Below, one piece after another: positions 29,226 through 48,573 of a stretch of DNA of 64,000 nucleotides. The stretch is from a virus: positions 1 through 64,000 of the IMG/VR virus record IMGVR_UViG_3300007722_000007. One strand, 5' to 3'. The stretch's first letter is position 1; every line of letters starts with the position of its first letter. Under the pieces are notes generated by a model that was not told where the DNA came from, made no database searches, and was given only the letters and a program-made list of their open reading frames with translations. A program made the position numbers and the translations under genes.

Positions 29226-32200
29226 ATGACTGACACGCTCTCCCCCATTCGCGATTACGAGTACAAGTCGTTAACCGGTCAATTCAATATAGATGAAGCG
29301 CTTGGGATCATTGAATGCTTCGTGGCGGGCATTGGCAATAAGGATTCCGTCGGGGATGTATGCCTTCCGGGCTGTTTTACGAACTCGCTAAAAAGAAGAA
29401 AGCCACGGGTTGTTTGGGGCCACAATTGGAACGAGCCCATTGGGAAGGTCCTTGAAATATACGAGGTCGGCCCAAACGATCCGCGGCTACCGACAAAAAT
29501 GAAAAAGGCCGGCATTGGCGGACTTTATGCAAAGGTCCAATTTAATCTAAAAGCAGAAAAGGGACGCGAGGCATTTGCTAACGTCGGGTTTTTTGGGTTT
29601 GACCAAGAGTGGTCAATCGGCTACAAAACGTTAGATGCGGTATTTGATAGCACCCAGCAGGCCAACCTATTAAAAGAAGTAGAGCTGTACGAAGTCAGCC
29701 CTGTTCTCCATGGGGCGAATCAGTTGACAGGGACGATATCCATCAAGTCTGATGAGCCCGCCGCGGATCCTGCTAATAATTCAGCACTCGCCGGCCCCAA
29801 TGGTGCTGAGATGAAAAACCAAGTAACTGCGATTTACGAAGCGGTTACCAACCCTATTAATACCGTGGTTGGAAGAGCGGCGGATTTAACGCGGGCGCTG
29901 TCTGCGCACTTTGGCGGCCCCGTTCGCCTGGTTAGTGCCGACCACGATATTGCCATCTTTGAAATGGGAGCCGGACAATCTACGGAAACGATGCGGGCCA
30001 CATACCATTACGACGGTGATGAATTCATGTTTGGAACAGCGCAACAGGTGCGACCAGAAACAATTTATATTCCTATTCATTCTTCGCTGGGTAGCAGGGA
30101 AAATGGGGAAACAATCGCGCCCGGCATCACATTGGCGATGCTACCGGCAATCGGCCAAAATATTCTGGATGTGCTGACATTCTCGGCCGATAAAAAGGAT
30201 AGTTGCTGTGATGAGTGCGCTATCCACGGCGGCTCTTGCGGGGATTCAAAATCGGCGATGACCCTGTCCGAGTTCAAATTAGCGAACCCTGGCACCCATG
30301 TAATTATTAGTCCAACCGATCCGGTGGAATCGGCGGATATTTTTGACACAGTTAGAACGGTTAGCGAATATCACGGCTTCTCAATAAAAATTTTGACCGA
30401 GGGGATTGTTGTTCAAAACTACGACACCCTGCAACCAGATGCCATAACCGCAATCACGACCGTACTCAGCGGCATTGAGGCAAAGGGGCTACGACCAAGT
30501 CTCAATAGACGGCGTACAAACATGAACCCGATGACGGCCCGCAACGCCGACAATGATGAATTTGTCTTAGAGGGAATCCCGACAATTAATAGGGGTCGCG
30601 GGGTTATCGATCCAACGCCGGGGAGCGATGCAAATGTCCCCAATTTGAACCGAAATCGTCGCGGGGCCGAAATGATGCCATCGGTGCCACAGCCGCGCGA
30701 GGTCCCCGAAGAAATTCCTGAAGTTGCGCCAGCGATACCGCGTAGGAAGCCAGACGAAGAACCCGAAAAAGTTCCAGAAAAAGTTCCAGAAAAAGAACCT
30801 CAAAAGGAACCAGGGCGTCCACCACCGATAACCGTTCCACCAGAACGCGAACCATGGAAGACCCCGCCGCGCCCCGTGCCAAAACCGGAACCAGCGCCGA
30901 CGCCGCCACCAAGACCAGTAACGCCTCCGATTCCAGAGCGACCAAGGGTCCCAGATGCACCACCAGTGCCAGTACGGCCACTAGTCCCTGTCGGCCGGGC
31001 AAGCACGGCTAATCCGAGCGGGAGCATGAGCTCTTCTCTTGAGAGCATAGACACCGAGATGGATGCCATTAACCGACGATTAGCTACCGCCTCGCTAACT
31101 AACACCTTTGAAAATACGAACCGTTCAGCTCCGGAATTGATCCGGGACAGACGAAGACTACAGCAGCTGATCCAGCAGCGGTACGCAATTGAGCGGAGTA
31201 GAGGAAACGATGCAAGCTCATTCACTGGGGAAAAACTGCCGGACGCTGTTTCCGCGCGCGGAAACATTGGCGGCTCTAGGCAGGCCCAAGCGGAATTGGC
31301 GAGAAATATATACCTAGCTCGCCAGCACGGTGGGATGTCTCTCGATCAAGCATCACACGAATTTGGAAAAACCAGAGAAGAAATTAGACAGTTGGAAGTA
31401 CGCCACATAAGCTCGCTGCGGAATCTCGGCGAAACTCATCCAAATAGATTGTCGCGCAGAGCGCTGGACAATCCGTCCATCCCGCTTTCTAGCGATTCTA
31501 TCGATTTGTTGAAGCGCAGACTTGATGGGGAGACACTCGACGAAGCAGCACAGAGACTTGGGACTGACAGATATTCCGTTCGTAGATCAGAACAACTAGC
31601 CTTATCAAAATTGCGAAATTTTTTAGAATTAAATGACGATATAGATCTGCCAGTCGGAATGCAATTAGCAATTGACGCGCTGGCAATGGCGGAGGACGTC
31701 AGCGATTTAAAAGACGATAACGCCAATCAGGATTTAACGGATGCGGTACCCGATGTTGTATCGGGGAATTTTGGTACCGATGCCCCAACTGGGTCGATGG
31801 CGTCAATCTTGCGGATGTCATCAGATAATGACAATGAGCGGAGCGGGCCAGACGAAAAATTAAATAGACGCCTTTACGACAAATACGGCGATGACTCGAT
31901 TGATAAACTTGCAAAAGATAACGATCTTTCCAAGAATGAAACTATTGCGCGAATTCGTGGCCATGCAATAAATCTCTCAGCATCCGAGAGCCCGCGACGC
32001 GCCGAGATGCGCTCCCTTGTAAATAGACACCGGGATTCTGTAACGGAATCCGATAGAAGAATATTAAAATTACGCCTCAACGGCGCATCCCTGGTCGACA
32101 CAGCCGACGAAACCGGTTTATCGCGGGAGGAAGTACGGCAACGAGAACAAAAGGCTATTTCTAAGCTTAGGAAACTATCTGGGTTGGCGGATGATCAGCC

Positions 32201-35200
32201 AACGGTGATCCGGTCGACATTCGGAGCCGACGAAAATGGACCTTATATTGTTCAAGCACTGTCGGACGGAACGGAATCAACCCGCACAATCGGGCCAACG
32301 GAATTTGACAAACAGTTTAATTATGCATCCGCAACATCTTCCTTTGATGAATTCGCACGAATATTAGAGGATGATAATTTCAACAGCAGTCCAAGCGGAT
32401 CAATGAAATTCGGCACCAAAAAACACAGGGCCGGCGACTCGGTGGCAACTCTTAATAAAGACGGAGAATACGAGAACTACGACATACAAATTGATAGAAC
32501 GAATCCGGATAAACCGTTTATTCGCGCTCGGCGCGCGTCGTATCCGGAAATTGGACAAAAACCAATTCATGAATTAATTGGCGAGCGTATGCCAAACGGT
32601 CCAGAATTTGATGACGGTCAGAACACTTACTGGACACGCCACCAGGATCATCACGCATTTGTTTCGTCGGCAGAAGCTGATATTCTGGAAATCGCATCAA
32701 AAACAGGACCAATAAAATTTAAGGACGGCATAATCTCCGGTCATTATGTCGACGGTAATGGAAAGGAAATTAATTTCTCGATTACGCCGTCTCTTACTAC
32801 AGGTCGGGATAGCGGCCGGAATCTTGTTTTATTTAATTCCAGCGAAAGCGAATTCGGTATTCAGTTCCACAACGCCGGGAAGGTTGAAAACGTCGTCCCC
32901 AATGTCATTGAAGTGGCGATGTCCGATAAGGAAAAATTGGACGCACTTCTCCAGACCGGTACTGGAAAAAGGCTGGCTACGGCCGGGCGCGGATTAACTC
33001 ATCAATGGTGGAAGCAATCAACATGGCAATTCCGTTATGGAGGTAAAGACAGTGCCTCAAAGACCATCACAAAAGATCCACAGACGGATATTATTGCCCC
33101 AGACGCCGATGACCTAATAGCCAAAGCCGACAGGCTCGGTGTTTTTAACCCAGCCGTGGACATGGGCATTGATCCAAAATCGGATCAGGGCAAAAAACTT
33201 ACCGTTGTCACAAGCATCGCGAACCGATACAGCATGAGTGGGACATTATCAGAAAAACAGTGGGCCTATTTACGAAGCCTACTTAAAGGTTTTGATGACA
33301 GCGGTGTTGCGCCAAGTCGGCAGGGCGCAACAGATATCCCAATCCTCAGGGTTGACGGACCGGAAAACCTACCAGGGCCATCGGACGTGTCGCCAGAAGC
33401 CCCCGAGGACGACACATGGGCGGAGAAACTGGCAAAAGTGGATTCCGTTGATCTTTCCGATATGACGCGTAGTCATGTAGATATGGACACCGGCGAAATA
33501 ACGCGTTATGCAACGGTAAATATCGGTGATACCAGTCGCCAGTCAAACCGGTATGTTGTCGCGGACGAAAACGGCGTTCTTCGTAAATGGAATCATCCAC
33601 GCGGCGCAGATCAGCAGGGCTGGGAAAGAGGCGGAGGATTACATTGGCCGGCAAATGAGGTCGGTGATGAATACGATGAACTGGTAGAGCGTGTTAACTT
33701 CCAGCGCGGTCGGGTTCCAAACGAAGAAGCCGTGATGATAAGTAGTAAGCCGTGGGTAGAGGAAGCAAGATTGCGCAGGGCGTCCGGTGAAGATATAGAT
33801 GCCGAAGATGTTGAAGCTGAATATCGGGAGCTTGGACTTTACGGGATGGACATGACGCGACCGGACGGATGGGATGAAAGCGATACCCATATTACGATAG
33901 GCAGAAATAATACCACCGAGAGCATTGTTGATGCCGTGAGCGCCCATATTAAAACCGGAAAACCGTTGCAATTTGGCTACAATAAAAACGACGGCACACC
34001 AACGACGACGAGAGTTCTGCGTTCGGCGCGGATGGGGAAAAATCCGCATACCGGAGTCCACTATGTCATTGGCGGAGACGGCATAGACGAAAAAAATTAC
34101 CGAGTAGATCGGATAGTCGGCTACGATAAAAATTTAGATAAGAACGCAAGTAAGCCTAAAACTGATCCGCCGAATACGCGATTTAGTGGAGAACGGCAGA
34201 CCGGTGGCGGAAGCGGCGAACGTCGCCCGCGCGATAAGCCAGCCGATTCAGGCGAAGAAGCACGGCGAATACGGGAAGATGAGGCAGACCCCGGCGCCTG
34301 GGGCGACAATGTGGATAATGAAAACGACAGACGATCCAGGGAAAGGGCGCCTCGCGAAGAGAGAGCGCCTCGTGAAGAGAGAGAAGCGCCCAAAAAGGAG
34401 CGCTCCGGAAATACTGCGCCCCGCGAACGGGAAATGATAAGAGTCGGAACACGCGGGGTGATTGGAAAAACTATTGCCATTAGTGGCTCGGTTAATAATA
34501 AGGAAAAAATTGGTCAGTTATTGGATGCGGCTCGTTCTAATAATAGAGTCTCGTTTATGTACGGCAACAAACCGTATACCGTTTCGTTTCTTGATGTCGA
34601 GGCGGGCGCCTCATTATCGGAGTTCTCGGATCTGTGGTTTCTCCACGCTACTGATAGCGACGACAATATACGGAAAAAATTTGATGTCTCTGAGATAAAT
34701 ATGGATAGACCCAATGATCCGGTGGCGTCGGGTAGGGCGATCGGATCAATACTCACCGGCGCAGAGCGAACACCGGGTAGGCGGAATTTTGTCAATATTC
34801 CGCTGGGGGTTATGGTCGCCGACCATAACAGACAGAGGGAACAAGCGCGGATATCGCACAAAAAATCTACCGATTCCACCGACAATTCAATAAGCGGCTC
34901 CATGGACCTCACTCCGACACGAGTCAATAATTATTTTCCTCCGTCATACTGGACACCGAATAAGCATGATGCGAGATACGCAGCAATGCCCCGCGAAGAA
35001 CAAGACCAAGAATTGCAAACGATTATATCCAGACTCCATTCGGATGCCCCCATTGACGCGGCGCAGACCAATGACCTCCTGGATAGATTCGCGGCTATCG
35101 ATCGAGTTATGCGCACGGATGGCAAATCTTACGTCGATGAATTCGGCATAGAAATTGAGAGAGCCCCAAATGGGGAGTATTTGCTTACCGGCAACGTGGA

Positions 35201-37484
35201 TATAAGCGTCTTTGAAATGGCAAATCCGTCGGGTTCAATGGGGCGTTACGCAAGGCCAACTAATTCGTCAGATCGCGCAATGGATGATTCCTATAATGCG
35301 CAAATATACAATGAGCTGAATGATTTAATGTCGTCAACTTCCGATGCGGACGCAATAAGGCAACTTGCTCGTCGCCATGGAACGAGTGAGCATAATATAC
35401 GCAGGCGACTCAATGTGGTCGACAGGGAACGCGCACGTGAAATTTCCGCCCTTGACAGGGTCGGCGATATTCAGGATGATATCGATCGTGGGGATATATT
35501 ATTTGACGACCTAGAAATGACCCTTGATTTAAGCTCATCGGATTTTGACACAGTTAGGAATATCGACTACGTATTAGGCGAGCTCGATCTCAGATACAGC
35601 AGTAATAGCCCCAGCGGGAGCATGGCATTGCGACGCGGCGAGGACCTGTCAAGCAAAACAACGGACGAACTGCGAGAGTTATTTAATGAATCAATTGAAC
35701 AACTCTTTGGATCCGAGAGGCCTCATCCCAAGGATAACGCAACAAGATCAAGGTTTTTGCGGGACATTGAAAATATCGGGTCAGAAATTCAATCTAGATT
35801 CTTGGCCAGTCCAGAAGCCGTAGCAATTAGAAATAATATTAACGGGGATGACCCAAGCGGGAGCATGTCCCTGCATCCAAGTGGAGGTCAACCCAAAATA
35901 CCATTAAGCGGTAGCCGCCTAATCGATAGACGGCTTCAAAATGTGTACGGTCCAGATGATTGGGAATCTGTCGCTTTGCAAATAGGCGCAAGATTCACCA
36001 ACATGGAAAATAGGGACTGGGAAAACCCATCCATGGATGACCTGATGGATCTTCACCACCTACTAGACATGAGGGCCAGTGAAACAATCATAGTCGACGG
36101 CCTCCCGGAGGTTTTTGATGGATTTACCTATGATGTCCTTTCTATCGCCGGCGACCTAGATATAACGCCAGAGAATGTTGTTGGTTATGCGTCGCGGGGT
36201 CGCGATTTGGCCGAAATCAAGCAGATGGCCGGGATGTCCCCATTTGAGCGAGCAGAAAAAATGATCCTGATTGATAGGCGTAAGAAATTTGAAAACATGC
36301 TTGATTTGAAAAAACAAGAGCTCGGCGATGGCTACGACAGCTGGCTCGATAGCGCGGTAGAAATAAATAACGGAATTTCATTTGATGAGAACGGCAATCC
36401 GAGAGACCGGGATTACATAGAATCACGCGGTGGGCCGTATGGCGGGTTTTTCGTATCGCCCGAAACCGGCGAGCCGGCCGATTCTAAATTAAAAGACACG
36501 CTCGGAACTTTCCTTGAAGATCTGTATAACGCCCCGTCATATCAGCCCCCCGGCGGTCCTAGCGGGTCAATGGCCTATATCGAGCAACGTTACGACATTA
36601 GGCCGAATCCAGATGGTTCGTGGTCCATAATTGATACGCATAATAATAATTCGCCGACCGGAGAGGCATACGGAAGACGCGAGGATGCGCTAAGTGCGGC
36701 CAGACGCATGGATAGGGGGCCGAGTACGCAACGGGGCAGTTTGCGTGCGAGAAATTCTCCAAACCCACAAGCCACGCCCGATCAGGGGCCGTCACAAAGC
36801 CCGCCGGCGCAGACTCAAGATTTGACCCAAGAACAGCTGTCGTTTGATGACGGCCCATCTGGGTCAATGATGGGGAGATTGCCTGGAAGTAAATGGATTT
36901 CAAATGACCCTCTCCGCCGCCACGGAGAAGAAGTTACGAAGCGCCATGCCGAAATAGCGATACAGAATTATCATCGTGGCCCAGCTTCAATGCCATTCGG
37001 GGGTGCCGAGGATGCGAGTAATGAAATGCTATTCAAGGGGTGGGTGGTGGCGGACTCGTCCCTAGACACCCTTTTAGGAAGACTTGAATATTTGGATAAA
37101 GTCCATACGGGAGGTTTGGATAGGGGCCGCACGGGGGGCCTAGACAGAACCCGTATGGGTATTCCCGGGGAGCCATTTAGCACGCCGGAAATCAGGGAAA
37201 GTTACCCCGATACACCACTGGTGGATATGACTTCCGCCATCGTAACCGAAATTGGGCATGTTCTGGCATATCTTCTCAAACTACAACGAAGGCGTAATTG
37301 GTTCCATATGAACCTAAAACGGAGAATGGAAAAGACCAATAACTACCTTATGGCCGACCAATTTGATTCAATGAATGACAGCCGAAGCGGGATAGGCCGA
37401 GAGGAGAAAGACTCTTTGGTATCGGGTAAATTCCCACGGTATATATTGCCGTCTATCGTCAGCATGGTTGCGCAAAAATCATGA
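29226..37484 (+). CDS. Giant prohead protease fusion polyprotein with HTH and WYL-like modules
   Basis: A 2,752-residue protein. The start is the ATG at 29226 with AAGGA four bases upstream; a TTG at 29208 would add six residues. Residues 1-175 are an HK97-family (U35) prohead protease: WGHNW with His66, EWSIGY with Ser130, then VELYEVSPVLHGAN. At about 325-340 there is a Cys cluster (CCDECAIHGGSC). Residues ~440-465 carry the acidic ARNADND loop; ~500-590 is Pro-rich linker with PEK repeats. Sigma-region-4-like HTH modules occur at about 690-735, 750-803, 879-918 (weak), 939-987 and 2024-2075 (weak). WYL-like modules lie at 1552-1639 and 1739-1828, and a small DUF2188-like fold at ~2455-2500. 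Nine [ST]GSM motifs separate these parts. The usual family length is about 200 residues. Protease at the front suggests self-processing; that is inference. Confidence 0.85.
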   Translation: MTDTLSPIRDYEYKSLTGQFNIDEALGIIECFVAGIGNKDSVGDVCLPGCFTNSLKRRKPRVVWGHNWNEPIGKVLEIYEVGPNDPRLPTKMKKAGIGGLYAKVQFNLKAEKGREAFANVGFFGFDQEWSIGYKTLDAVFDSTQQANLLKEVELYEVSPVLHGANQLTGTISIKSDEPAADPANNSALAGPNGAEMKNQVTAIYEAVTNPINTVVGRAADLTRALSAHFGGPVRLVSADHDIAIFEMGAGQSTETMRATYHYDGDEFMFGTAQQVRPETIYIPIHSSLGSRENGETIAPGITLAMLPAIGQNILDVLTFSADKKDSCCDECAIHGGSCGDSKSAMTLSEFKLANPGTHVIISPTDPVESADIFDTVRTVSEYHGFSIKILTEGIVVQNYDTLQPDAITAITTVLSGIEAKGLRPSLNRRRTNMNPMTARNADNDEFVLEGIPTINRGRGVIDPTPGSDANVPNLNRNRRGAEMMPSVPQPREVPEEIPEVAPAIPRRKPDEEPEKVPEKVPEKEPQKEPGRPPPITVPPEREPWKTPPRPVPKPEPAPTPPPRPVTPPIPERPRVPDAPPVPVRPLVPVGRASTANPSGSMSSSLESIDTEMDAINRRLATASLTNTFENTNRSAPELIRDRRRLQQLIQQRYAIERSRGNDASSFTGEKLPDAVSARGNIGGSRQAQAELARNIYLARQHGGMSLDQASHEFGKTREEIRQLEVRHISSLRNLGETHPNRLSRRALDNPSIPLSSDSIDLLKRRLDGETLDEAAQRLGTDRYSVRRSEQLALSKLRNFLELNDDIDLPVGMQLAIDALAMAEDVSDLKDDNANQDLTDAVPDVVSGNFGTDAPTGSMASILRMSSDNDNERSGPDEKLNRRLYDKYGDDSIDKLAKDNDLSKNETIARIRGHAINLSASESPRRAEMRSLVNRHRDSVTESDRRILKLRLNGASLVDTADETGLSREEVRQREQKAISKLRKLSGLADDQPTVIRSTFGADENGPYIVQALSDGTESTRTIGPTEFDKQFNYASATSSFDEFARILEDDNFNSSPSGSMKFGTKKHRAGDSVATLNKDGEYENYDIQIDRTNPDKPFIRARRASYPEIGQKPIHELIGERMPNGPEFDDGQNTYWTRHQDHHAFVSSAEADILEIASKTGPIKFKDGIISGHYVDGNGKEINFSITPSLTTGRDSGRNLVLFNSSESEFGIQFHNAGKVENVVPNVIEVAMSDKEKLDALLQTGTGKRLATAGRGLTHQWWKQSTWQFRYGGKDSASKTITKDPQTDIIAPDADDLIAKADRLGVFNPAVDMGIDPKSDQGKKLTVVTSIANRYSMSGTLSEKQWAYLRSLLKGFDDSGVAPSRQGATDIPILRVDGPENLPGPSDVSPEAPEDDTWAEKLAKVDSVDLSDMTRSHVDMDTGEITRYATVNIGDTSRQSNRYVVADENGVLRKWNHPRGADQQGWERGGGLHWPANEVGDEYDELVERVNFQRGRVPNEEAVMISSKPWVEEARLRRASGEDIDAEDVEAEYRELGLYGMDMTRPDGWDESDTHITIGRNNTTESIVDAVSAHIKTGKPLQFGYNKNDGTPTTTRVLRSARMGKNPHTGVHYVIGGDGIDEKNYRVDRIVGYDKNLDKNASKPKTDPPNTRFSGERQTGGGSGERRPRDKPADSGEEARRIREDEADPGAWGDNVDNENDRRSRERAPREERAPREEREAPKKERSGNTAPREREMIRVGTRGVIGKTIAISGSVNNKEKIGQLLDAARSNNRVSFMYGNKPYTVSFLDVEAGASLSEFSDLWFLHATDSDDNIRKKFDVSEINMDRPNDPVASGRAIGSILTGAERTPGRRNFVNIPLGVMVADHNRQREQARISHKKSTDSTDNSISGSMDLTPTRVNNYFPPSYWTPNKHDARYAAMPREEQDQELQTIISRLHSDAPIDAAQTNDLLDRFAAIDRVMRTDGKSYVDEFGIEIERAPNGEYLLTGNVDISVFEMANPSGSMGRYARPTNSSDRAMDDSYNAQIYNELNDLMSSTSDADAIRQLARRHGTSEHNIRRRLNVVDRERAREISALDRVGDIQDDIDRGDILFDDLEMTLDLSSSDFDTVRNIDYVLGELDLRYSSNSPSGSMALRRGEDLSSKTTDELRELFNESIEQLFGSERPHPKDNATRSRFLRDIENIGSEIQSRFLASPEAVAIRNNINGDDPSGSMSLHPSGGQPKIPLSGSRLIDRRLQNVYGPDDWESVALQIGARFTNMENRDWENPSMDDLMDLHHLLDMRASETIIVDGLPEVFDGFTYDVLSIAGDLDITPENVVGYASRGRDLAEIKQMAGMSPFERAEKMILIDRRKKFENMLDLKKQELGDGYDSWLDSAVEINNGISFDENGNPRDRDYIESRGGPYGGFFVSPETGEPADSKLKDTLGTFLEDLYNAPSYQPPGGPSGSMAYIEQRYDIRPNPDGSWSIIDTHNNNSPTGEAYGRREDALSAARRMDRGPSTQRGSLRARNSPNPQATPDQGPSQSPPAQTQDLTQEQLSFDDGPSGSMMGRLPGSKWISNDPLRRHGEEVTKRHAEIAIQNYHRGPASMPFGGAEDASNEMLFKGWVVADSSLDTLLGRLEYLDKVHTGGLDRGRTGGLDRTRMGIPGEPFSTPEIRESYPDTPLVDMTSAIVTEIGHVLAYLLKLQRRRNWFHMNLKRRMEKTNNYLMADQFDSMNDSRSGIGREEKDSLVSGKFPRYILPSIVSMVAQKS
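30522..30623 (+). repeat. Acidic-loop module, copy 1 (ARNADND...IDPTP)
   Basis: This segment of the giant protease gene encodes ARNADNDEFVLEG followed by IPTINRGRGVIDPTP. The same module recurs at 39583-39685 and 57549-57652. Copies 1 and 2 share 46 identical consecutive bases (30568-30613 and 39630-39675), far more than codon choice elsewhere would predict. The D/N-rich loop resembles a calcium-binding turn. Confidence 0.85.
30759..30806 (+). repeat. Tandem 12-bp repeats (PEK-type) in the giant protease gene
   Basis: Four degenerate 12-base units, two of them identical (GTTCCAGAAAAA), encode a charged Pro-Glu-Lys linker between the acidic-loop module and the first [ST]GSM site. Such repeats expand and shrink easily. 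Confidence 0.7.
34344..34379 (+). repeat. Tandem 18-bp repeat (RAPREE) in the giant protease gene
   Basis: Two 18-base units differing at two positions encode RAPREERAPREE in a charged linker between the two WYL-like modules. Confidence 0.7.
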
Positions 37485-37609: not shown

Positions 37610-37658
37610 ATACACAAAAATGACCAGCGATAGCGATCACACCCCAAAAGGCGCTGTT

Positions 37659-39457: not shown

Positions 39458-42400
39458 ATGGCCGACGCCGAAAACACAAAATCCCATAACGACGTTCGTC
39501 AAAACCGACGAACACACCGTAAATCAAATTTTCTGACTTCGCAAAAGGGCATCGGTTCGCCAATCGGCGGCCCCCAGAGGGACATGAACCCCGCCACGGC
39601 GCGGAATGCAGATAATGATCTATTCGTCCTAGAGGGAATCCCGACAATTAATAGGGGTCGCGGGGTTATCGATCCGACCCCGACTGGCTCAATGGCTGGT
39701 AGCAAGCGCTCTAAGCGCCGCAAGGCTCGCAAGTTTGTCAACGATCTAATCGGCGACAGCGATGTTACTGATCCAGAATTTGACTCTGCGGATATTGACG
39801 AGGATACCCCGCTATCGCTATTGGATTACGAACAGGATAGTTTGTTCCCAGAAGACGATTTCATCGTACGGCGTTCTGGGGTGCCAGAGATTTTTGAGGA
39901 TGAACCTTGGGATGATTCCGTTGATTACGCTAGCGCCTGGCGGGAATATTTAAGAAATTCCGGCCTGGATGACACGATCGATCCGAATGATTTTGACATA
40001 GACGAATCAGACCTAGCGGCACTGCCATTTTATAAGCCCCAAAGTGACATACTCGGCAGAACGTATCCGGGAACGAGCGTAGCGAAGCCCTCATCGGGTC
40101 CCAAGAAATTTGACGATTACCATAATAAAACGAAATACGCTGGGGATAGATATGTAATCACGCAACAGGCCTTAACGCTGGCTAGACACCGGGATTTAGT
40201 CGCCAAATCACGATGGGACACAATCCACAATGCACACTACGACTGGTGGGCATTTCCGATTGACAGGGGCAGTGGAGGGTATGGAAATAAATATAATATC
40301 GCCGGCAAACCGCTTTCTAGGCTGAAAAGAAATAAACGATTTCTGAACAATGTGGCTGAGGCAATTCATATCCAAGCACTAGCCCTTGGTTGGGATATTG
40401 ACACAGATGACTACATCGCCGATATTGATTGGGATACAGGACAGGACCCATGGCTCGCATACCCAACACGATTTTGGAAAATGACTCGCTCTGCTCAAAT
40501 ACTAGGTCTAGATAAGGAATTTAACTCGCTCTTGTTATTGCAGGCTTCGTTAAGCGAGGGCGGAATCAGATTTGGTAGACGCGAGTACTGGGATAACCCG
40601 GGGCCCCCAGGGGATAGCACGCCGCTCAAAAAACGGAAATATGAATATGGCGACGGAACGGTTTCTGGGTCGATGGCCGGCAATAAAAAAAACACCGACA
40701 GCAATTGGAGAGGCGATTTTTCCGAGCAGTTGGCATCCGGATTTGTTGGCGGTATGGCCGGACTGCGCAAACGCATGAAAAGCGACTCATTAATTGCCAA
40801 TCCACTCCATGAGTATTTTTTACAACGGACCACATCCATGGGTGACAACCCGACCACCGGTCGGCGACCCAGCGACCTAGTGATAAATCCCTATGCTGGG
40901 GAAAACATAATCGGCGCCGCCGAAGCGCGCGATTGGTTTGATTTTGCGATCATGCTAAATGACACGCAATCGTGGGTGCTGGAAAACGCCAACAATGGGG
41001 AGCAAATAAATGATGGTTTATTTTTCCAGAATTCTTTCCCGCGGATGGCTTTGGCAAAACTATTGATGGGCCAGATGGGACGCGACGATTCCGAAATGAA
41101 TACAGTTGCAAATCTGCGACGCGCAGGAAGAAAGATGATGGCGGAAAATAATATAGACGGAGCCGATTTCCCTATTCTTGCTGGAGATATTGCAAACCCG
41201 TTTATTAAGAAAGTTGAATCTACCCCGAACGGCTGGTTAGTTACACGCCATGATGACGCCAGGAAGCTGTGGTTTTGGTTTAGGGACGAAAGGGAACAGG
41301 CGCTGGCGGACCTCGGCCGCGCAATAACTAAAGATAGACAGAAAAACAAATTAGCCGATCCAGCGCAATGGCTAGACGGATCAGGCGTTAAGGCATTTTT
41401 CAAAAATCGAGCGAGCAAGCAATCGCCGATAATCGGCCCGCTAGGCGGCTCGACTCCGAAACGAATGGAACTAAGTAAAATTACTTTACCGCCTGGGCGA
41501 TTTGCTAATAGGGACAAAATTGCAGCTCTGCGGAATAACGGCAATTTCAACAATCATGCCAATCCGGTTGATACTTGGTTAGATAATGTTTCCCGCGGGG
41601 ACGCACTGCTGAGTGGCCGCAGGCCTATCCCGTCGACCCGATGGCCGATGGACGAATTAGAGACCCGCGATTGGTTTGACTATTGGCTGATGCTGTCTGA
41701 CTCATTGCCGGAAATAACCGCACGAGATTTTGAGGTGCTAAGAGAAGCTGGGCCGCATATTAGAACTAGCCCGAATGAATGGCTACCCCAGGATGACGAA
41801 CAGTGGAATGAAAACAAACTGATTAACGAAACCCAACGGCGCCATGACAAGGTTAAATTTGTAATGGCCGAAGCACTCAAATATCTCTCTGCGCTTGCGC
41901 GGCCTGACGAAAATGATAATAACGATGTGGTTTGGGAAGACATGCGCAACGCCGGCCAGTCGATTAATCAACGATGGGGGATTGACGCACAAATAAATGC
42001 CGAAATAAATCTTGCGGAAATGCAAGGCAGGGATTGGCCATTTAGGGAATATGTCGCTCCGGAAAAATTGAACAAAGATGTAATTAAATTTGGGCAACTG
42101 GGTAATTTTGCCACTGCGACACCAGACGGATGGATTGTAAATACAAAACACGCAGATGGAGAAATGAAACCCCGTGCTTGGCGCATTTCTGATTCCGAAA
42201 GAGATTCCCTATACGACATGATCGGGGCCATATTAAATACGGGCGAAGAGAATTCTCCGCTTGGTGTCGATAATGCCACCGGAGACTCCGAATTAGATCT
42301 GGGCATGTTTCTGGAAAACCGAGCACAATTTTTCAAATCCGACGAACCGACTTTTAAATACTCAAATCGATTCGGCGACGATGACGATGCCCCCAGCGCA

Positions 42401-43231
42401 CGTTCTAGAATGTTGTCATATACAGACTCCGACCAGGCAGGCGACTATGTCGATGTTCGCTTACCGCATACAACAAGGCCCACCAGGCCCCACTCCAGGG
42501 AATGGGACACTAGCGACCTAAATGACTATGAGACAATTTTGGCCGATGGCAGGGTAACCCTATATGGTGACGATCAGCCTGACTTCCCAGATCAATATAA
42601 TGCAGGGGCCAACCCAATAACGCTTAGCCAAATCGGGATTAAAAACGGCCGATTGGCTGAAAATCTCAATCAAATTATCGGCCCGATGGATAAAGATGAG
42701 CGTAACGGAAATTTTGATTTTTTGATAATGCTCAATGACACCCTGACGCCAACCGCAGCCAATGCATTGGGCCGTTCGCCAAGCATTTTGATGCAGACCG
42801 TCTATGAAATGATTGGGGCAATGGCCCGCAACTCCGACCAAGTTGCTGGGGATGCGGATTCGCCAGCTGCGATAAATCTTGTCAGAAACACCAATATCGC
42901 ACTCGCGCAAATGATTGGGCTCAATAAGGACGGCGGGATGCGCAGTACCCGCCGCGGCTTCTTGATTCCTAAAAACTATGGGGGAATTAGGGAGTCCAGG
43001 AATTGGCGGATTGACGAAAATGAGCGGACCGCATTGATGGACGAAATAGGAAAGATGCTAAGATCTGATGGGACACTTGATCTGGAAGCTCTGGCCAAAT
43101 TTCTAACATCTCGGAGAAAGCGGTTTTCCCCAAAATCGCGCAGATTTATTAGCCCTGAGGCAATAAAGGAACGCCGCCGACGCTACTTTGACGAACGGTA
43201 TCAGAGGGACAAGAAAAACAATGAACAATAA
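39458..43231 (+). CDS. Large protein with acidic loop, two [ST]GSM sites and a triplicated unknown domain
   Basis: A 1,257-residue protein. Residues 1-40 are basic; PIGGPQRDMNP and the ARNADND loop follow, then PTPTGSM (Met79). An acidic segment (85-190) leads to a helical region and VSGSM (Met406). Three copies of a domain of 150-240 residues then follow. Each begins with a D-x2-IML-(N/S)D-(S/T) helix (DFAIMLNDT ~493, DYWLMLSDS ~740, DFLIMLNDT ~1086), has a GW(L/I)V or GFLI strand (~590, ~888, ~1165), and ends with an FL-x2-R type helix (~645, ~949, ~1213). I do not recognise this domain. The gene lies between giant genes and shares their modules, so it probably belongs to the same virion-cargo set. 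Confidence 0.75.
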   Translation: MADAENTKSHNDVRQNRRTHRKSNFLTSQKGIGSPIGGPQRDMNPATARNADNDLFVLEGIPTINRGRGVIDPTPTGSMAGSKRSKRRKARKFVNDLIGDSDVTDPEFDSADIDEDTPLSLLDYEQDSLFPEDDFIVRRSGVPEIFEDEPWDDSVDYASAWREYLRNSGLDDTIDPNDFDIDESDLAALPFYKPQSDILGRTYPGTSVAKPSSGPKKFDDYHNKTKYAGDRYVITQQALTLARHRDLVAKSRWDTIHNAHYDWWAFPIDRGSGGYGNKYNIAGKPLSRLKRNKRFLNNVAEAIHIQALALGWDIDTDDYIADIDWDTGQDPWLAYPTRFWKMTRSAQILGLDKEFNSLLLLQASLSEGGIRFGRREYWDNPGPPGDSTPLKKRKYEYGDGTVSGSMAGNKKNTDSNWRGDFSEQLASGFVGGMAGLRKRMKSDSLIANPLHEYFLQRTTSMGDNPTTGRRPSDLVINPYAGENIIGAAEARDWFDFAIMLNDTQSWVLENANNGEQINDGLFFQNSFPRMALAKLLMGQMGRDDSEMNTVANLRRAGRKMMAENNIDGADFPILAGDIANPFIKKVESTPNGWLVTRHDDARKLWFWFRDEREQALADLGRAITKDRQKNKLADPAQWLDGSGVKAFFKNRASKQSPIIGPLGGSTPKRMELSKITLPPGRFANRDKIAALRNNGNFNNHANPVDTWLDNVSRGDALLSGRRPIPSTRWPMDELETRDWFDYWLMLSDSLPEITARDFEVLREAGPHIRTSPNEWLPQDDEQWNENKLINETQRRHDKVKFVMAEALKYLSALARPDENDNNDVVWEDMRNAGQSINQRWGIDAQINAEINLAEMQGRDWPFREYVAPEKLNKDVIKFGQLGNFATATPDGWIVNTKHADGEMKPRAWRISDSERDSLYDMIGAILNTGEENSPLGVDNATGDSELDLGMFLENRAQFFKSDEPTFKYSNRFGDDDDAPSARSRMLSYTDSDQAGDYVDVRLPHTTRPTRPHSREWDTSDLNDYETILADGRVTLYGDDQPDFPDQYNAGANPITLSQIGIKNGRLAENLNQIIGPMDKDERNGNFDFLIMLNDTLTPTAANALGRSPSILMQTVYEMIGAMARNSDQVAGDADSPAAINLVRNTNIALAQMIGLNKDGGMRSTRRGFLIPKNYGGIRESRNWRIDENERTALMDEIGKMLRSDGTLDLEALAKFLTSRRKRFSPKSRRFISPEAIKERRRRYFDERYQRDKKNNEQ
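39583..39685 (+). repeat. Acidic-loop module, copy 2
   Basis: Copy of the ARNADND...IDPTP module with a 46-base stretch (39630-39675) identical to copy 1 at 30568-30613. It runs directly into a TGSM site. Confidence 0.85.
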
Positions 43232-43307: not shown

Positions 43308-43329
43308 TGGATCACGCAGAGATGCAGTG

Positions 43330-46300
43330 ATGCCATTAACCAGAAAGCTGCTATATAAAATGGGCTTCCCACGATCCTCAATTCCCCTAAACGCCAAGAT
43401 TATTGCATCTAGCGACTCTAAAACCATCTACCAAATGCCGGATGGGTCAAGATTTTTACAAAACGGAATAACTGGCGAATTGAGTGATTTAACCGCATTT
43501 GATACCGACATATTACGCACATCAACAGCGAGTATCGTTGATAATTCAAATATGGACTGGGCCAATAAAAGAATTGTGGATATGGCCGGGAAAAGTCTAG
43601 ATGATTGGTGGAAAACCAAATCCGTCTCCCAGTCTCCCAAGCGACAAAAGCCAAAAACAAAGCCGGAAGAGGAGTATAAATATATCCCAACAACCACCTT
43701 TGAGGCATGGGCTTCAAAATGGAAACCAGGGGACTCGCTTCCGCTGTCCCCGCCAGGCATGTCGCTCAATTTGTGTCAACACTCGGGCGGGGGTTCGCCA
43801 TTAGAGAGTTTCCGTAATCCAACCGTTGACGAAGTACTCAACCGAATGTGGCTTCCCGATGAGAGGTACGTTCGCGTCGCCGAACCGAGACAGGGGTTAT
43901 CGGAAAAAGGGATTTTAGGGGCGGGATTAGGTATGGGCAGAAGAAACCTTCTCGACTTTGATCTGGCTAGGCGAAATTTGCAGACCGGTTTTGGAATTTG
44001 GCGCGATGGTTTGAATAAACTCCGTTGCGGCCCAGGAAGCCCGGCCGCGAATAGGTTTACAAATATTTTTGGTCTCGGATGCGATATCCCCGGCGGCGGC
44101 GACGGCCCCCTAGATAATATTGCTGCGGCCATTCCAAATTTGAATGCGCCGAAACCCAATGCGCCGGGTCCGAAATCACCCAAAACACCCAAGCAAGCCG
44201 TAGAAACAATGCGCGAAATATTAGGGAGAACGGGTAACAGAGTTAGACCATTACGCGTTAGCCGCACGGGAGAAGAGGTATCTGGGTCAATGGGCGCCGA
44301 TGACGGCGACGCGCGGGCAGTCCGAATATTACCCCGTGCGACCATGAGACAACGTATGTTTGACTACGCCGCCCGTCTCGTGCGGCCCGTAAGCCGCGTT
44401 ACGGACCGAAAGAAGGAATGGTTGAAATCGAACCCAGACGGAAGACCGTTTGATGCGAGTATCGCCTTATATCATGAGACTCTAGGAAGACACGGCGGAA
44501 ATCCAAATTTAATGCATGCACCGGTATCAATTTTAAATACGAAAACGGACGTATACGGAGAGGTTGAGCTTTTTGATCCGCGCACCGGAACGTACCGGTT
44601 CATGAATCAACAGGACTTGATTGAGGGATGGGACCCGGATATAGCAAAATGGAGTACGAATAATGCCTCTGACCCAAAAATTGCAAAACAGCTTCGTGAA
44701 AAATTAAGAAATTCAATGTCGCTACAATCTGGCGATCACCCTTTTTCGTTAAGGGAATACGATCAAATTATATCTAATATCGGCACCATTCTCGATGGCT
44801 TTTCTGTCGCAATAGAAAGGACAGCGGGAGAAAATGGCTCCATCCCAGCAATGATGCTCACGGGCGTTTCTATTGGCGACGTACTCGGAGGAGGATGGTC
44901 CGATACGGAGATGCTAAGAGCGCAAGTGCGCGGGATGAAGCCCGTAGAGCGACGGGGCAACGCCGAAAATATGCTCAACCAATTGGGGATACAGACACGA
45001 TGGTCCCAGCGCGACGCAAGCCCATTCCTAACCGCCGATGACCTTGCCGCGATTTGGCCGGCCTTTCAGGCCGATGCGAGAGGCCGACTTGGGGCGGGCG
45101 CCACCGACGACGAAGTGGATATTGGGGCAAGCAAACTTTGGCAAGATCCCGATCAGCGTAAGAAGATTATGGCACGTGCTGACGCGCCAATGGCCGGTCA
45201 GATTGTTATTAACCCAAACGCGCTTACGGACGCTGCCCTTAATCGCTGGCGACTAACCGCGGGCGAACATTATTTGGCGAGCGGACGGCCAAATAACAAT
45301 TCGGATCTTTTGCACTATACGGCCGCCCACGAAATGGAACATCTCGCTGATTTCGCTCGCAAAGTGCAAACTCTGATGGGCATTGACGACACGAAGTGGT
45401 CGGATTGGGTCAGGGGACAACGGCCGATTAATCTAGACGATGCCGCTGATGGCTCAATAATGCGACAGGCGATAGACAGATTGAAAACGCAATGGCGCAG
45501 TATGGCGCCAGCGACAGAGAGAATAAGCGCATTACTTGAATTTTATATGATTTTCATTAGCACCAGTGGTAATAGCCCAAGAAGCGCAGAACAAATAATG
45601 AGGGATAGCGGTGCAACCAAAAAACAAATCGCCGAAATGTTTGAGAGAGTCAATGACGCAATGGAGCGAATCGGCATTATTGGCGAACACGATTGGTGGA
45701 AAAAAATCTATGCCGACGCAATGCCTGGGGATATAAACTCTCCAAATAAATCCACGGGGACACAAAATGCCTCGGGCCACCTCGTGAGCGAAGACGATAT
45801 TGGTATTATGATGGACTTTCTTGGTTCCATCTACGGTCAAAGTAATACTACCGAGATGGTAGCGGAGTTGGGCGCACTGTTATTTCAGGGCGGAAATGGA
45901 ATGAAATTAATTAGGGATTTCGTAAACGGGCCGGAAAATACGGACGGCATATCGATGGCTGAATTTCTTGATGTCATAGAGGCAATTTTTGGTAAAGCTA
46001 GGATGCCGAGTTTGGATGAGGGATTGTCAACGGGCGGATTGACATATAAATCAGCGCTCCCGACTACAAGGCAGACCAAAATACAAACAGCCGGCGGATC
46101 AACTCCATATAATTACACAAATGCGAAAGTATTATATTTTACAAAAGTTACAGATATTGTCTCTAGTAAGGTTCTTGGTCGTGGCCTAACCGGGAATAGA
46201 ATGCGTTCGGGAATCGTCTATGACCCGAACGCCCGAGACGGCGACGGGGACGGCATCCGACAGGATCGCACGCGATGGGAACGTCCGGTTGGCCCTCGTG

Positions 46301-48573
46301 CGCCAGAATTGGTGCATATTGGCGCGTTGAACGAGAACCGAAAAAATAGGCGCAGGCGTGGTGCATCTAAAATCCGAGGAAGACGCGTGAACACTACGCC
46401 AAGTTTCGCATCAGTCGCCTCTCGGCGGAATTATGACAGTGCGCCCACCGGAAGTATGGCACTCGGCCCCGGCAATCCGCTTGCCAGAAGCACCGACAAT
46501 GATTGGCTTGTAGATCTTGACGCATATAAAAGTTTAATGCTTAGAATTGAAGACAATATTGATCAAAAATTCAACGGCAGGCCGCGAACTATCGGCGACG
46601 TACTCGACAAACTTGCCACCGCCAAAGACGGTCTCGGCAAGCGAAATATTAATTTAGATCTCGTCCCGGCGTATTGGTTAATACCCGCAATGAGCGCCAT
46701 GAAATCGGCCCTCGGAGGTCGCTATAGCGGAAACGACACCGTGGTTTCCCCAACCGAGCTCGGAGCGTATTATTCATTGATGCATCACCTAGATCAATAC
46801 CCTGAAGCCTTTCAGGATATTAGTCTAATATTCTCTCCGTCAAGCATGCCCGACGCTCCGTCATTTGACGGACCAGTCGGCGCAACATCGGTTCGCCCGA
46901 CATACGAAACGGCAGCAATGTCCGATGGGTCAAATTTCCGACCAGAATTTCACAGGATGCTGCCGGGCCTGAGGGAGGGGTTACCGTATCCGGATATGGA
47001 AAATTCCCCTGTCGTCTCCGAGTCCGGGGCGGGCGATTTAACCAAATGGGAGTCCACAATTCAGCCGCGACTGAGGCGTGGCGTGAAAACCGTCATTGTT
47101 CAAATACCAAGCACCACATCTGGCCACGGCAAATACCCATCGTTCCAGAACATGAAAGATGGTAACTCGTTTGAAATACAGCTTGATCAAATCGGAGACC
47201 GAAACATCGGCGTTTTCATAGACGAAATGTACAGATTGCTAGAAAATAATAGCGAGGGAGGCCAACTAATAGACAATGTCGGCTCCGTTGTTCTAACGCA
47301 ACTTATCAAAGATGCTGCGGATAAATTTGACAATGCTATGCGTTCCGCAGAATCAAATCCGTCAATGAGGGGACAGATCGTTTCCGCCGCAACCGCACGG
47401 GCGGATGCCGACCTAGATGAAATAGCCCAGGCGGCTTCATTTTTAATTGCGACCCACGAGTTCGGACACGTTCTTGATTCGGTCGGAAACTGGAGACGCT
47501 CCCCGCTGGCAGCAAATCAACACAGTTCTCGTGGGCTAAATACCGTAGGGGAGTTCAGAAGAACAATCACTGAACTTTCGGCGATTGAGGACGGTCTTGA
47601 TTCACCGCTCGCCAAACCATTGTATAATTCCCTAGCGTCGACATTTGTTTTTGAGCATGTCAATGACGCGCTAGCGTCACACTCCGCATTCAAGGAGATG
47701 ACGGGAATCCTCCAACAAATGAGACAGCAATTGGATGAGTTTGGATCCGTGTTGTCCCTCTTTGATTCAATGGCCACGGACGCCAGAAATAACGGCGCTG
47801 ACACCAGTGCCATGTTTGAGAATAGCGGACTTGCTTCTATTATGGGGCAAACGCCGATGGACCTATTGGCAATTTTCAATTTATCCGTGTCATCTCAGGA
47901 GTCGGCGCTAGACCAAATGCGCCTCATGGACAGGGTCATGAGAAGCCAATATGATGTGGCCGCTGAAAGACTGCGTGAACTATATGAAAAAGTTACAGCA
48001 CTAGTGCCGGTATATCATTGGATAAATAAACAGTCATTTGATGTGAATAACATAGGGCGACAAATGACCGACATACGGACCACTAATCCAAATGCGATTG
48101 CTGAATTTATGCAAAATTTTGGTAATGACGTTTACGGAAAATCAGCGTGGTTTGATGATGACGGTCAGTTCAATGAGCGGAAATATATTATATCCGCGTT
48201 AAATAAAATGGCAGATCCTGATAATTATCACCGGATGCTCAGCCGTGTCAATGACGGACTGATCATGCAGGGCAACAACGGTTGGAAAAACCTTGGCGAT
48301 GACGACATAGAGGCACTCGTAAAATTGATCCCGTATCTGTCTACGTATGCAGGGCCCGCATTTTATCCAGACCAAATCGCAAACCCGGAAAATTATCCAG
48401 GATCCAACTCTGAGGCCTATGCTGAAATGCATCTCGCGCAAGTGCTAGCGGCAACTGGCACGCTTGACCATTTTGACGAAATAGAGCGAGCGCGTATTGA
48501 GAAAATATATAAACGCATGATTGATTGGGCGCGGAATTTAATAGAAGACGGGATGGTAGATAGTGGAAATTAA
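43330..48573 (+). CDS. Giant protein with two HExxH zincin-like domains
   Basis: A 1,747-residue protein. The ATG at 43330 follows an in-frame GTG at 43327. The N-terminus has a small beta region, then near residue 231 an RCGPGSPAANRFTN...GLGC module. VSGSM (Met321) and PTGSM (Met1043) flank the first large domain, which contains AAHEMEHLADFA (HEMEH, 667-671) with a later Glu in TTEMVAELGALL (~843). An acidic loop ARDGDGDGIRQD lies near 966-975. The second domain has IATHEFGHVLDSV (HEFGH, 1376-1380) and a later Glu in SEAYAEMHLAQVL (~1696). HExxH plus a distant Glu is the zinc site of gluzincin-type metallopeptidases. Both look intact. They may process virion proteins or act as host-directed effectors. 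Confidence 0.78.
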   Translation: MPLTRKLLYKMGFPRSSIPLNAKIIASSDSKTIYQMPDGSRFLQNGITGELSDLTAFDTDILRTSTASIVDNSNMDWANKRIVDMAGKSLDDWWKTKSVSQSPKRQKPKTKPEEEYKYIPTTTFEAWASKWKPGDSLPLSPPGMSLNLCQHSGGGSPLESFRNPTVDEVLNRMWLPDERYVRVAEPRQGLSEKGILGAGLGMGRRNLLDFDLARRNLQTGFGIWRDGLNKLRCGPGSPAANRFTNIFGLGCDIPGGGDGPLDNIAAAIPNLNAPKPNAPGPKSPKTPKQAVETMREILGRTGNRVRPLRVSRTGEEVSGSMGADDGDARAVRILPRATMRQRMFDYAARLVRPVSRVTDRKKEWLKSNPDGRPFDASIALYHETLGRHGGNPNLMHAPVSILNTKTDVYGEVELFDPRTGTYRFMNQQDLIEGWDPDIAKWSTNNASDPKIAKQLREKLRNSMSLQSGDHPFSLREYDQIISNIGTILDGFSVAIERTAGENGSIPAMMLTGVSIGDVLGGGWSDTEMLRAQVRGMKPVERRGNAENMLNQLGIQTRWSQRDASPFLTADDLAAIWPAFQADARGRLGAGATDDEVDIGASKLWQDPDQRKKIMARADAPMAGQIVINPNALTDAALNRWRLTAGEHYLASGRPNNNSDLLHYTAAHEMEHLADFARKVQTLMGIDDTKWSDWVRGQRPINLDDAADGSIMRQAIDRLKTQWRSMAPATERISALLEFYMIFISTSGNSPRSAEQIMRDSGATKKQIAEMFERVNDAMERIGIIGEHDWWKKIYADAMPGDINSPNKSTGTQNASGHLVSEDDIGIMMDFLGSIYGQSNTTEMVAELGALLFQGGNGMKLIRDFVNGPENTDGISMAEFLDVIEAIFGKARMPSLDEGLSTGGLTYKSALPTTRQTKIQTAGGSTPYNYTNAKVLYFTKVTDIVSSKVLGRGLTGNRMRSGIVYDPNARDGDGDGIRQDRTRWERPVGPRAPELVHIGALNENRKNRRRRGASKIRGRRVNTTPSFASVASRRNYDSAPTGSMALGPGNPLARSTDNDWLVDLDAYKSLMLRIEDNIDQKFNGRPRTIGDVLDKLATAKDGLGKRNINLDLVPAYWLIPAMSAMKSALGGRYSGNDTVVSPTELGAYYSLMHHLDQYPEAFQDISLIFSPSSMPDAPSFDGPVGATSVRPTYETAAMSDGSNFRPEFHRMLPGLREGLPYPDMENSPVVSESGAGDLTKWESTIQPRLRRGVKTVIVQIPSTTSGHGKYPSFQNMKDGNSFEIQLDQIGDRNIGVFIDEMYRLLENNSEGGQLIDNVGSVVLTQLIKDAADKFDNAMRSAESNPSMRGQIVSAATARADADLDEIAQAASFLIATHEFGHVLDSVGNWRRSPLAANQHSSRGLNTVGEFRRTITELSAIEDGLDSPLAKPLYNSLASTFVFEHVNDALASHSAFKEMTGILQQMRQQLDEFGSVLSLFDSMATDARNNGADTSAMFENSGLASIMGQTPMDLLAIFNLSVSSQESALDQMRLMDRVMRSQYDVAAERLRELYEKVTALVPVYHWINKQSFDVNNIGRQMTDIRTTNPNAIAEFMQNFGNDVYGKSAWFDDDGQFNERKYIISALNKMADPDNYHRMLSRVNDGLIMQGNNGWKNLGDDDIEALVKLIPYLSTYAGPAFYPDQIANPENYPGSNSEAYAEMHLAQVLAATGTLDHFDEIERARIEKIYKRMIDWARNLIEDGMVDSGN

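What the first reader, a model, noticed from the sequence alone, without database searches (positions are those of the whole stretch)
29226..37484. Prohead protease fused to 2,500 residues of transcription-factor-like modules
HK97-type proteases are normally about 200 residues. Here the protease is followed by up to five sigma-region-4-like helix-turn-helix segments (best: TLDEAAQRLGTDRYSVRRSE and SLVDTADETGLSREEVRQRE, both ending in a K-L-R helix) and two WYL-like segments (GKPLQFGY...YRVDRIVGY; NRVSFMY...FDVSEI). Sigma-4 modules contact -35 DNA and RNA polymerase; WYL modules bind ligands or nucleic acid in regulators. Their presence in a protease-led chain suggests regulators packaged in the capsid and delivered with DNA.
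Basis: partly seen in the sequence, partly recalled or inferred. Interest (0 to 1): 0.9.

Follow-up and report, generated by a model that had tools for sequence, protein, structure and literature searches.

The report
Phage polyproteins with a cleavage code
An uncultured tailed phage appears to make much of its capsid cargo, including sigma-factor-like DNA-binding proteins, as a few giant chains that its own head protease would cut apart at a short repeated 'cut here' sequence, a layout well known in RNA viruses but, as far as I could find, not described in tailed phages.

Summary
The ORF is real: an S78 (HK97-type) prohead protease leads a 2,752-residue chain. Sigma-region-4-like helix-turn-helix segments are well supported; one WYL segment is weakly supported and the second is not. 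It occurs 24 times in four giant ORFs of this phage (shuffled expectation 0.06) and never in its minus-strand genes. The other giants include a 5,437-residue ORF at 57169 that runs past the window. In relatives the same kind of boundary carries a different genome-wide version (GPVGxM, P[TVI]A[SA]M, EAGM). Between homologues P5 and P3 are conserved (P1 less so) while P4 and P2 drift, as expected of a protease recognition site. A similar [GA]-x-M occurs behind the protease domain in most relatives and in the delta-domain region of their major capsid proteins. Best reading: the prohead protease cuts four polyproteins into about 28 capsid-internal proteins, among them sigma-4-like DNA-binding proteins, a Clp-N domain, a NUDIX hydrolase and a zeta-type kinase. 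Cleavage is strongly inferred, not shown. Delivery into the host and the regulators' function remain inference.

The parts
29226..37484 (+). Polyprotein A, 2,752 aa: prohead protease plus ten predicted fragments
   Evidence: Open frame; nine [PVI][STV]GSM sites
29226..29813 (+). S78 prohead protease domain, residues 1-196; candidate triad H66, S130, E156
   Evidence: Pfam PF04586 2.7e-10; PHROG 80 5.2e-28; the H/S/E pattern is present in all 80 fetched protease loci (residue numbers by reading the sequence)
29799..29813 (+). Candidate self-release site NGAEM (residues 192-196), [GA]-x-M type
   Evidence: [GA]-x-M behind the protease domain in most of 34 distinct relatives
30483..30659 (+). Shared segment TARNADND...GRGVIDPTP in A (residues 420-478), candidate capsid-targeting segment
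   Evidence: Match of A to B and D in the own record and to several ORFs of G010; role inferred
31014..31028 (+). Predicted cleavage site 1 of A, PSGSM (M601)
   Evidence: aligned to GPVGRM in G001
31029..31799 (+). Module 602-858 with a tandem sigma-4-like HTH pair (core about residues 687-800)
   Evidence: Pfam Sigma70_r4; PDB profile hits all sigma region 4
31785..31799 (+). Predicted cleavage site 2 of A, PTGSM (M858)
   Evidence: aligned to PSGAV/PSGAI in relatives
31800..32405 (+). Module 859-1060 with a second HTH pair; sigma-factor PHROG match at residues 878-986
   Evidence: PHROG 1740 2.3e-9; best Pfam Sigma70_r4 stretch 938-983
32391..32405 (+). Predicted cleavage site 3 of A, PSGSM (M1060)
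33927..34118 (+). WYL-like segment 1 (residues 1568-1631), weak
   Evidence: Pfam WYL 0.048 / 0.0026; coherent but non-significant PDB hits
34890..34904 (+). Predicted cleavage site 4 of A, ISGSM (M1893)
35226..35240 (+). Predicted cleavage site 5 of A, PSGSM (M2005)
35241..35624 (+).
   Evidence: Conservation; HTH assignment from the sequence only
35610..35624 (+). Predicted cleavage site 6 of A, PSGSM (M2133)
35853..35867 (+). Predicted cleavage site 7 of A, PSGSM (M2214)
36558..36572 (+). Predicted cleavage site 8 of A, PSGSM (M2449)
36855..36869 (+). Predicted cleavage site 9 of A, PSGSM (M2548)
39458..43231 (+). Polyprotein B, 1,257 aa; sites at 39680-39694 (PTGSM) and 40661-40675 (VSGSM); shared segment at 39545-39721
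43327..48573 (+). Polyprotein C, 1,748 aa; sites at 44278-44292 (VSGSM) and 46444-46458 (PTGSM)
48683..48697 (+). Near-motif PTGNM in the 132-aa ORF 48563-48961, possible further substrate
   Evidence: Sequence
57169..64000 (+). Polyprotein D, 5,437 aa, continues past the window to about 73480 of the record; in-window sites 60088-60102, 60619-60633, 61252-61266, 62431-62445, seven more beyond; shared segment at 57502-57825
   Evidence: Clp_N, NUDIX and Zeta_toxin domains in its C-terminal part

Best explanation
The giant protease ORF is one of four polyproteins (A-D) encoded between the portal gene and (by comparison with a relative) the major capsid gene. The S78 prohead protease at the N-terminus of A would cut all four, in cis and in trans, at P-[S/T/V]-[G/A]-x-M| during head assembly, releasing itself and about 28 mature proteins. 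Uncut chains would enter the prohead, perhaps through a shared segment (TARNADND...GRGVIDPTP) near the start of B and D and behind the protease in A; the protease would then free the modules inside the capsid, where they stay with the DNA and are likely ejected with it. Released modules include tandem sigma-4-like helix-turn-helix proteins, a Clp-N domain, a NUDIX hydrolase and a zeta-type kinase. Shown: sites, statistics, conservation pattern, domain content, gene order. Strongly inferred: cleavage by the S78 protease. Inferred: packaging, and that the cut falls after M (by analogy with other prohead proteases, whose P3 and P1 define the site). Weakly inferred: ejection and early host takeover.
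For: 24 [PVI][STV]GSM in four giants against 0.06 in shuffles, none in 7,635 aa of minus-strand genes or in four neighbouring late ORFs. Own versus G001 identity at sites: P5 19/25, P4 2/24, P3 21/25, P2 4/25, P1 15/25, flanks 23-36%, chains 38%. Concerted genome-wide variants: GPVGxM, P[TVI]A[SA]M, VSGKM and EAGM 20 copies against 0.26 expected, at aligned boundaries. [GA]-x-M behind the protease domain in most of 34 distinct relatives. ANM in the delta-domain region of relatives' capsid proteins. SPN3US protease cuts after A-x-E with V at P4 (PMC10052503). No recognised domain straddles a site. In G001 the capsid gene follows polyprotein D.
Against: No cleavage or virion data exist. Not all sites are kept between relatives, and P1 is M in only 15 of 25 aligned positions (others often L, I or V, some misaligned). 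The capsid ANM site matches only the P3/P1 core, not the full motif, and its cleavage is itself inferred. The protease sequence of the EAGM genome lies off its contig, so a matching change of specificity could not be tested. EAGM sites use GAG in 20/20 cases, hinting at an added DNA-level constraint there. Cultured relatives with giant proteins lack such a motif.
Confidence: 0.8

Rival explanations
1. The chains are intact multidomain 'polyvalent' proteins and PSGSM is only a recurrent flexible linker between domains.
For: Polyvalent proteins with many domains are established in phages (PMC5512222). The motif does lie between domains and is small and flexible in composition.
Against: A linker needs no invariant M or alternating fixed positions, and would not switch as a set to EAGM in another genome while staying at the same boundaries.
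Confidence: 0.08
2. The M of each motif is an internal translation start, so that each module is also made on its own.
For: Every site ends in ATG. In G010 the motif DNA GAGGCNGGNATG resembles a Shine-Dalgarno plus start, with GAG at 20/20 sites.
Against: Shine-Dalgarno-like 4-mers precede only 1/24 sites here (background 19/276) and 0/44 in four related sequence sets. Synonymous codons vary while the amino acids stay.
Confidence: 0.05
3. The polyproteins are cleaved, but as disposable scaffold or core: the fragments shape the prohead and mostly leave it, with no role in the new host cell.
For: Prohead proteases destroy scaffold and propeptides in T4 and phiKZ-like phages (PMC10052503). Much of A-D has no recognised domain. 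The genes lie where core and scaffold genes usually lie.
Against: Enzyme domains (NUDIX, zeta-type kinase, and RNase_T in L039) and sigma-4 pairs conserved above the chain average fit cargo better.
Confidence: 0.3
4. The sigma-4-like modules are packaged but act only as DNA-condensing proteins, not as regulators.
For: There is no sigma region 2; several HTHs in tandem suit architectural DNA binding.
Against: The profile resembles sigma region 4 specifically, not HTHs in general; this does not decide function.
Confidence: 0.4

Closest known systems
Polyvalent proteins of phages and conjugative elements (Iyer et al. 2017, PMC5512222)
   Same: Giant late-gene multidomain proteins with an embedded peptidase, effector-like domains (zeta-type kinases fused to MuF are mentioned there), predicted processing, and the polyprotein analogy already drawn.
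   Different: [quoted passage not shown] the passages I read give no repeated cut motif. Here an N-terminal S78 protease, one code shared by four ORFs, and sigma-4-like modules.
Prohead-protease maturation of capsid-internal proteins in T4, phiKZ and SPN3US (PMC10052503)
   Same: A phage protease in the prohead cuts many head proteins at a short P3-x-P1 motif; ejected proteins share the capsid.
   Different: There each gene gives one mature protein plus a propeptide; here one gene would give up to twelve, and P1 is Met instead of Glu.
Phage P1 DarA/DdrB head-packaged, processed proteins (discussed in PMC5512222)
   Same: Proteolytically processed proteins carried in the head and acting early.
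   Different: Single proteins, different domains, no series of identical sites reported in the text read.
Gordonia phages GMA6/ChisanaKitsune/DalanDe, Brevibacterium phage Cantare, Streptomyces phage Gilgamesh
   Same: Related portal, protease and capsid genes with large genes packed between portal and capsid; protease-cargo fusions exist (S78 plus a NUDIX-like segment in Gilgamesh gp52, a long N-terminal extension in DalanDe gp27).
   Different: No recurrent cleavage-like motif in the giant proteins checked (Gilgamesh gp48, DalanDe gp27).
Polyproteins of RNA viruses
   Same: Embedded protease, repeated short cut sites, many products from few ORFs.
   Different: Unrelated protease and virus, DNA genome, capsid-internal setting; an analogy only.

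Membership tests
Peptidase S78 prohead protease | S78 domain match above curated cut-off | tested here: met
   41.1 bits against a cut-off of 21
Peptidase S78 prohead protease | Conserved His/Ser/acidic catalytic pattern | tested here: met
   Pattern found in all 80 protease loci; activity untested
Peptidase S78 prohead protease | Cuts capsid and internal head proteins | not testable with these tools
   Sites predicted only
Polyvalent proteins | Several unrelated effector-like domains in one late phage protein | tested here: met
   S78, Sigma70_r4 in A; Clp_N, NUDIX, Zeta_toxin in D
Polyvalent proteins | Delivered with the DNA into the host | not testable with these tools
   No virion data
Protease-processed polyprotein | Own protease encoded in one of the chains | tested here: met
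   S78 at the N-terminus of A
Protease-processed polyprotein | Repeated, conserved sites at module boundaries in all substrates | tested here: met
   24 sites, shuffled 0.06; alternating conservation; concerted variants
Protease-processed polyprotein | Demonstrated cleavage | not testable with these tools
   Needs enzyme assay or mass spectrometry
Sigma-70 factor | Region 4 HTH | tested here: met
Sigma-70 factor | Region 2 (-10 element and core binding) | tested here: not met
   No region 2 match in Pfam or PHROG scans of A; so not a sigma factor, only sigma-4-like
WYL domain | Match above curated cut-off | tested here: not met
   14.1 bits (18.1 in the isolated module) against 21.8; segment 2 none

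The most novel reading that the evidence does not exclude
A lineage of tailed phages makes its capsid cargo as several true polyproteins governed by one protease code that drifts in concert across each genome, and ejects the freed modules, including sigma-4-like factors, to redirect host transcription at the moment of infection.
Probability: 0.35. Interest if true: 0.92.

Novelty: new variant of a known kind. Interest (0 to 1): 0.78.

Why it matters
If true, polyprotein processing, a strategy associated with RNA viruses, organises the capsid contents of some DNA phages. The code makes the cargo readable from sequence: every mature capsid-internal protein can be predicted and tested. It also gives a natural series of site variants that have shifted genome-wide, useful for studying how a protease and some 25 sites change together, and it names candidate ejected proteins in a group of uncultured phages whose takeover proteins are unknown.

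Tried and rejected
A direct search with the sigma-4 module alone found no relatives in viral contigs or in cultured phages; as a degenerate-peptide search it also missed the homologues already held, so this is no measure of rarity. A single-sequence search of the sigma pair against PDB gave nothing; the profile did. The fold model of the WYL module was too poor to use. The ribosome-binding-site explanation of the motif was tested and is not supported in this phage or in four related sequence sets, with a caveat for G010. A search for a similar motif in Gilgamesh gp48 and DalanDe gp27 was negative, a useful control. Host assignment through genome contigs gave only metagenome-assembled bins, not trusted. 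The phage's own capsid gene could not be read: the 74,450-base record has no capsid match and ends about 1 kb behind polyprotein D. The alignment to G001 misplaced some sites and includes three or four chance matches of the looser pattern, so the per-position counts are rough and probably conservative. Literature searches found no tailed-phage polyprotein of this kind in the held library; subscription papers and preprints are not covered.

Full report
WHAT IS THERE. The ORF at 29226-37484 is uninterrupted and encodes 2,752 residues. It lies directly behind a portal-MuF gene. Residues 28-171 are an S78 prohead protease (Pfam 2.7e-10; PHROG 5.2e-28). The nearest cultured relatives by protease are Gordonia phages (GMA6, ChisanaKitsune, Gray, DalanDe) and Brevibacterium phage Cantare, at 37-40% identity over the protease only. 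The window is bases 1-64,000 of a 74,450-base uncultured virus record.

The sigma-4-like helix-turn-helix segments are real. Pfam Sigma70_r4 scores 3.8e-13 for the whole chain with three stretches, 5.1e-16 in the isolated module, and matches all five homologues scanned. A profile of residues 679-802 with three homologues hits 24 solved structures, every one a sigma-70/SigA region 4. The AlphaFold model has low overall confidence (58.8), but its HTH helices mostly score about 60-83 and sigma-factor chains dominate its (individually weak) fold matches. The first pair is 51-55% identical to homologues while the module as a whole is at about 35%, which suggests function. There is no sigma region 2, so these are sigma-4-like DNA-binding modules, not sigma factors. 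WYL segment 1 is weak but coherent. Segment 2 is unsupported.

A five-residue motif recurs between modules (NPSGSM, APTGSM, SPSGSM, GPSGSM and so on), nine times in this ORF. It recurs in three further giant ORFs: 39458-43231 (2 sites), 43327-48573 (2) and a 5,437-residue ORF from 57169 to about 73480 (11), 24 in all. Residue shuffling of the four proteins gives 0.06. None occurs in 7,635 residues of minus-strand genes or in four neighbouring late ORFs. The codons for P, S, G and S vary, so it is the peptide that is kept, not the DNA.

WHY A PROTEASE SITE. (i) Aligned to the homologous set in G001 (a 173,962-base contig), positions P5 and P3 are identical at 19/25 and 21/25 sites, P1 at 15/25 (others often L, I or V), while P4 and P2 are identical at 2/24 and 4/25; flanks 23-36%, chain average 38%. 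Every second residue being kept is what an extended substrate in a protease groove gives. (ii) The motif changes genome by genome but in concert: GPVGxM in G001, L004 and L037; P[TVI]A[SA]M in L039; VSGKM in L009; and in G010, whose D polyprotein is 29% identical, EAGM occurs 20 times against 0.26 expected, several at boundaries that align with PSGSM boundaries. (iii) A [GA]-x-M lies behind the protease domain in most of 34 distinct relatives: NPSGPM, PVTGRM, [DN]APM, and NGAEM in this phage (by chance alone roughly half would show one, so the weight lies in its conserved place and context). (iv) Relatives' major capsid proteins keep an ANM in the delta-domain region; removal of the capsid N-domain is the classical job of this protease (established knowledge), but the exact cut there is unknown. 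(v) The SPN3US protease cuts after A-x-E with V preferred at P4 (PMC10052503): same geometry, different P1. (vi) No recognised domain straddles a site, and the roughly 290 residues present in L036 but absent from L004 carry a site near each end.

ALTERNATIVES. Internal translation starts are not supported: Shine-Dalgarno-like 4-mers precede 1/24 sites here and 0/44 in four related sequence sets. In G010 the motif DNA itself (GAGGCNGGNATG) looks like one, and Glu is always GAG (20/20, against 63% overall and 17/21 in the same context), so a secondary role there is not excluded. A mere linker does not explain the fixed positions or the concerted switch. Giant proteins of cultured relatives (Gilgamesh gp48, 4,624 aa; DalanDe gp27) have no recurrent motif.

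CARGO AND ROUTE. Predicted fragments: ten from A, three each from B and C, twelve from D; those of A and D are 81-978 residues long. D's fragments include a Clp_N domain (1.2e-14), a NUDIX hydrolase (1.2e-6) and a zeta-type kinase (7.2e-19), each in its own fragment. In L039 the corresponding A region holds an RNase_T exonuclease (8.6e-7), so cargo differs between relatives while the architecture stays. In G001 the capsid gene follows the D homologue, some 45 kb behind the protease. A shared segment (TARNADND.FVLEGIPTINRGRGVIDPTP) lies near the start of B and D and behind the protease in A, and in several large ORFs of G010. I propose that it directs each chain into the prohead, as the T4 capsid-targeting sequences do; this is inference.

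HOW IT WOULD WORK. Four chains are made late, enter the prohead, and the S78 protease frees itself and the rest when the shell matures. Coupling in chains would fix stoichiometry and need only one targeting tag for many cargo proteins. Freed sigma-4-like proteins may stay on the packaged DNA and be ejected with it to act on host promoters or RNA polymerase; alternatively they only organise the DNA, or much of the chain is disposable scaffold. The cleavage step rests on strong sequence evidence, the rest on position and analogy.

NOVELTY. Iyer et al. 2017 (PMC5512222) described polyvalent proteins, noted assemblin-like peptidases at their C-termini and drew the polyprotein analogy. Beyond this I find an N-terminal protease, an explicit code shared by four ORFs, its concerted drift between genomes, and sigma-4-like cargo. 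Searches of the held literature found no precedent, within the limits of an open-licence library.

Noticed in passing
57169-64000 (+), continuing to about 73480 of the record: A 5,437-aa ORF, larger than the one reported, with eleven predicted sites and Clp_N, NUDIX and Zeta_toxin domains in its C-terminal part; a full-length homologue lies in G001.
   Followed up: yes
37620-39443 (+): Its C-terminal part (ALPDGSFPI...GRAK...IPENW) resembles by eye the C-terminal end of the GMA6/ChisanaKitsune protease ORF, as if the cargo had been inserted between the protease and its scaffold-like half.
   Followed up: partly
48958-49611 (+): A segment of this ORF (GYGPRRGNLE..LLRYWRPIMKKPGGFRRC...) occurs inside the protease ORF of relatives L030 and L046: the same module free in one phage, fused in another.
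   Followed up: partly
43327-48573, 49577-51688, 51672-56117 (+): Several late proteins share a short Cys-containing pattern (CP..G....G.FT[DN]....CG), meaning unknown.
   Followed up: no
about 46250-46350 (+), near residues 985-1010 of ORF 43327: NARDGDGDGIRQDRTRWERP, similar in feel to the NADND segment and to DGDNDGSVQDATIHERP in G001; possibly the same targeting element in diverged form.
   Followed up: no
L120:3479-17353 and L120:18665-20590 (Streptomyces phage Gilgamesh): A cultured relative has an unannotated 4,624-aa gene between portal and protease, and its 'hydrolase' gp52 reads as an S78 protease followed by a NUDIX-like segment; a possible laboratory model.
   Followed up: partly
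L121:14425-19326 (Gordonia phage DalanDe): The capsid maturation protease has a roughly 1,100-residue extension in front of the S78 domain.
   Followed up: no
L112-L114 (G010): All 20 EAGM sites use GAG for Glu, giving a Shine-Dalgarno-like GAGG ahead of ATG; partly explained by local codon context (17/21).
   Followed up: partly
L039:13670-18994: An RNase_T exonuclease domain (8.6e-7) is present in the region that corresponds to the WYL module of this phage.
   Followed up: no
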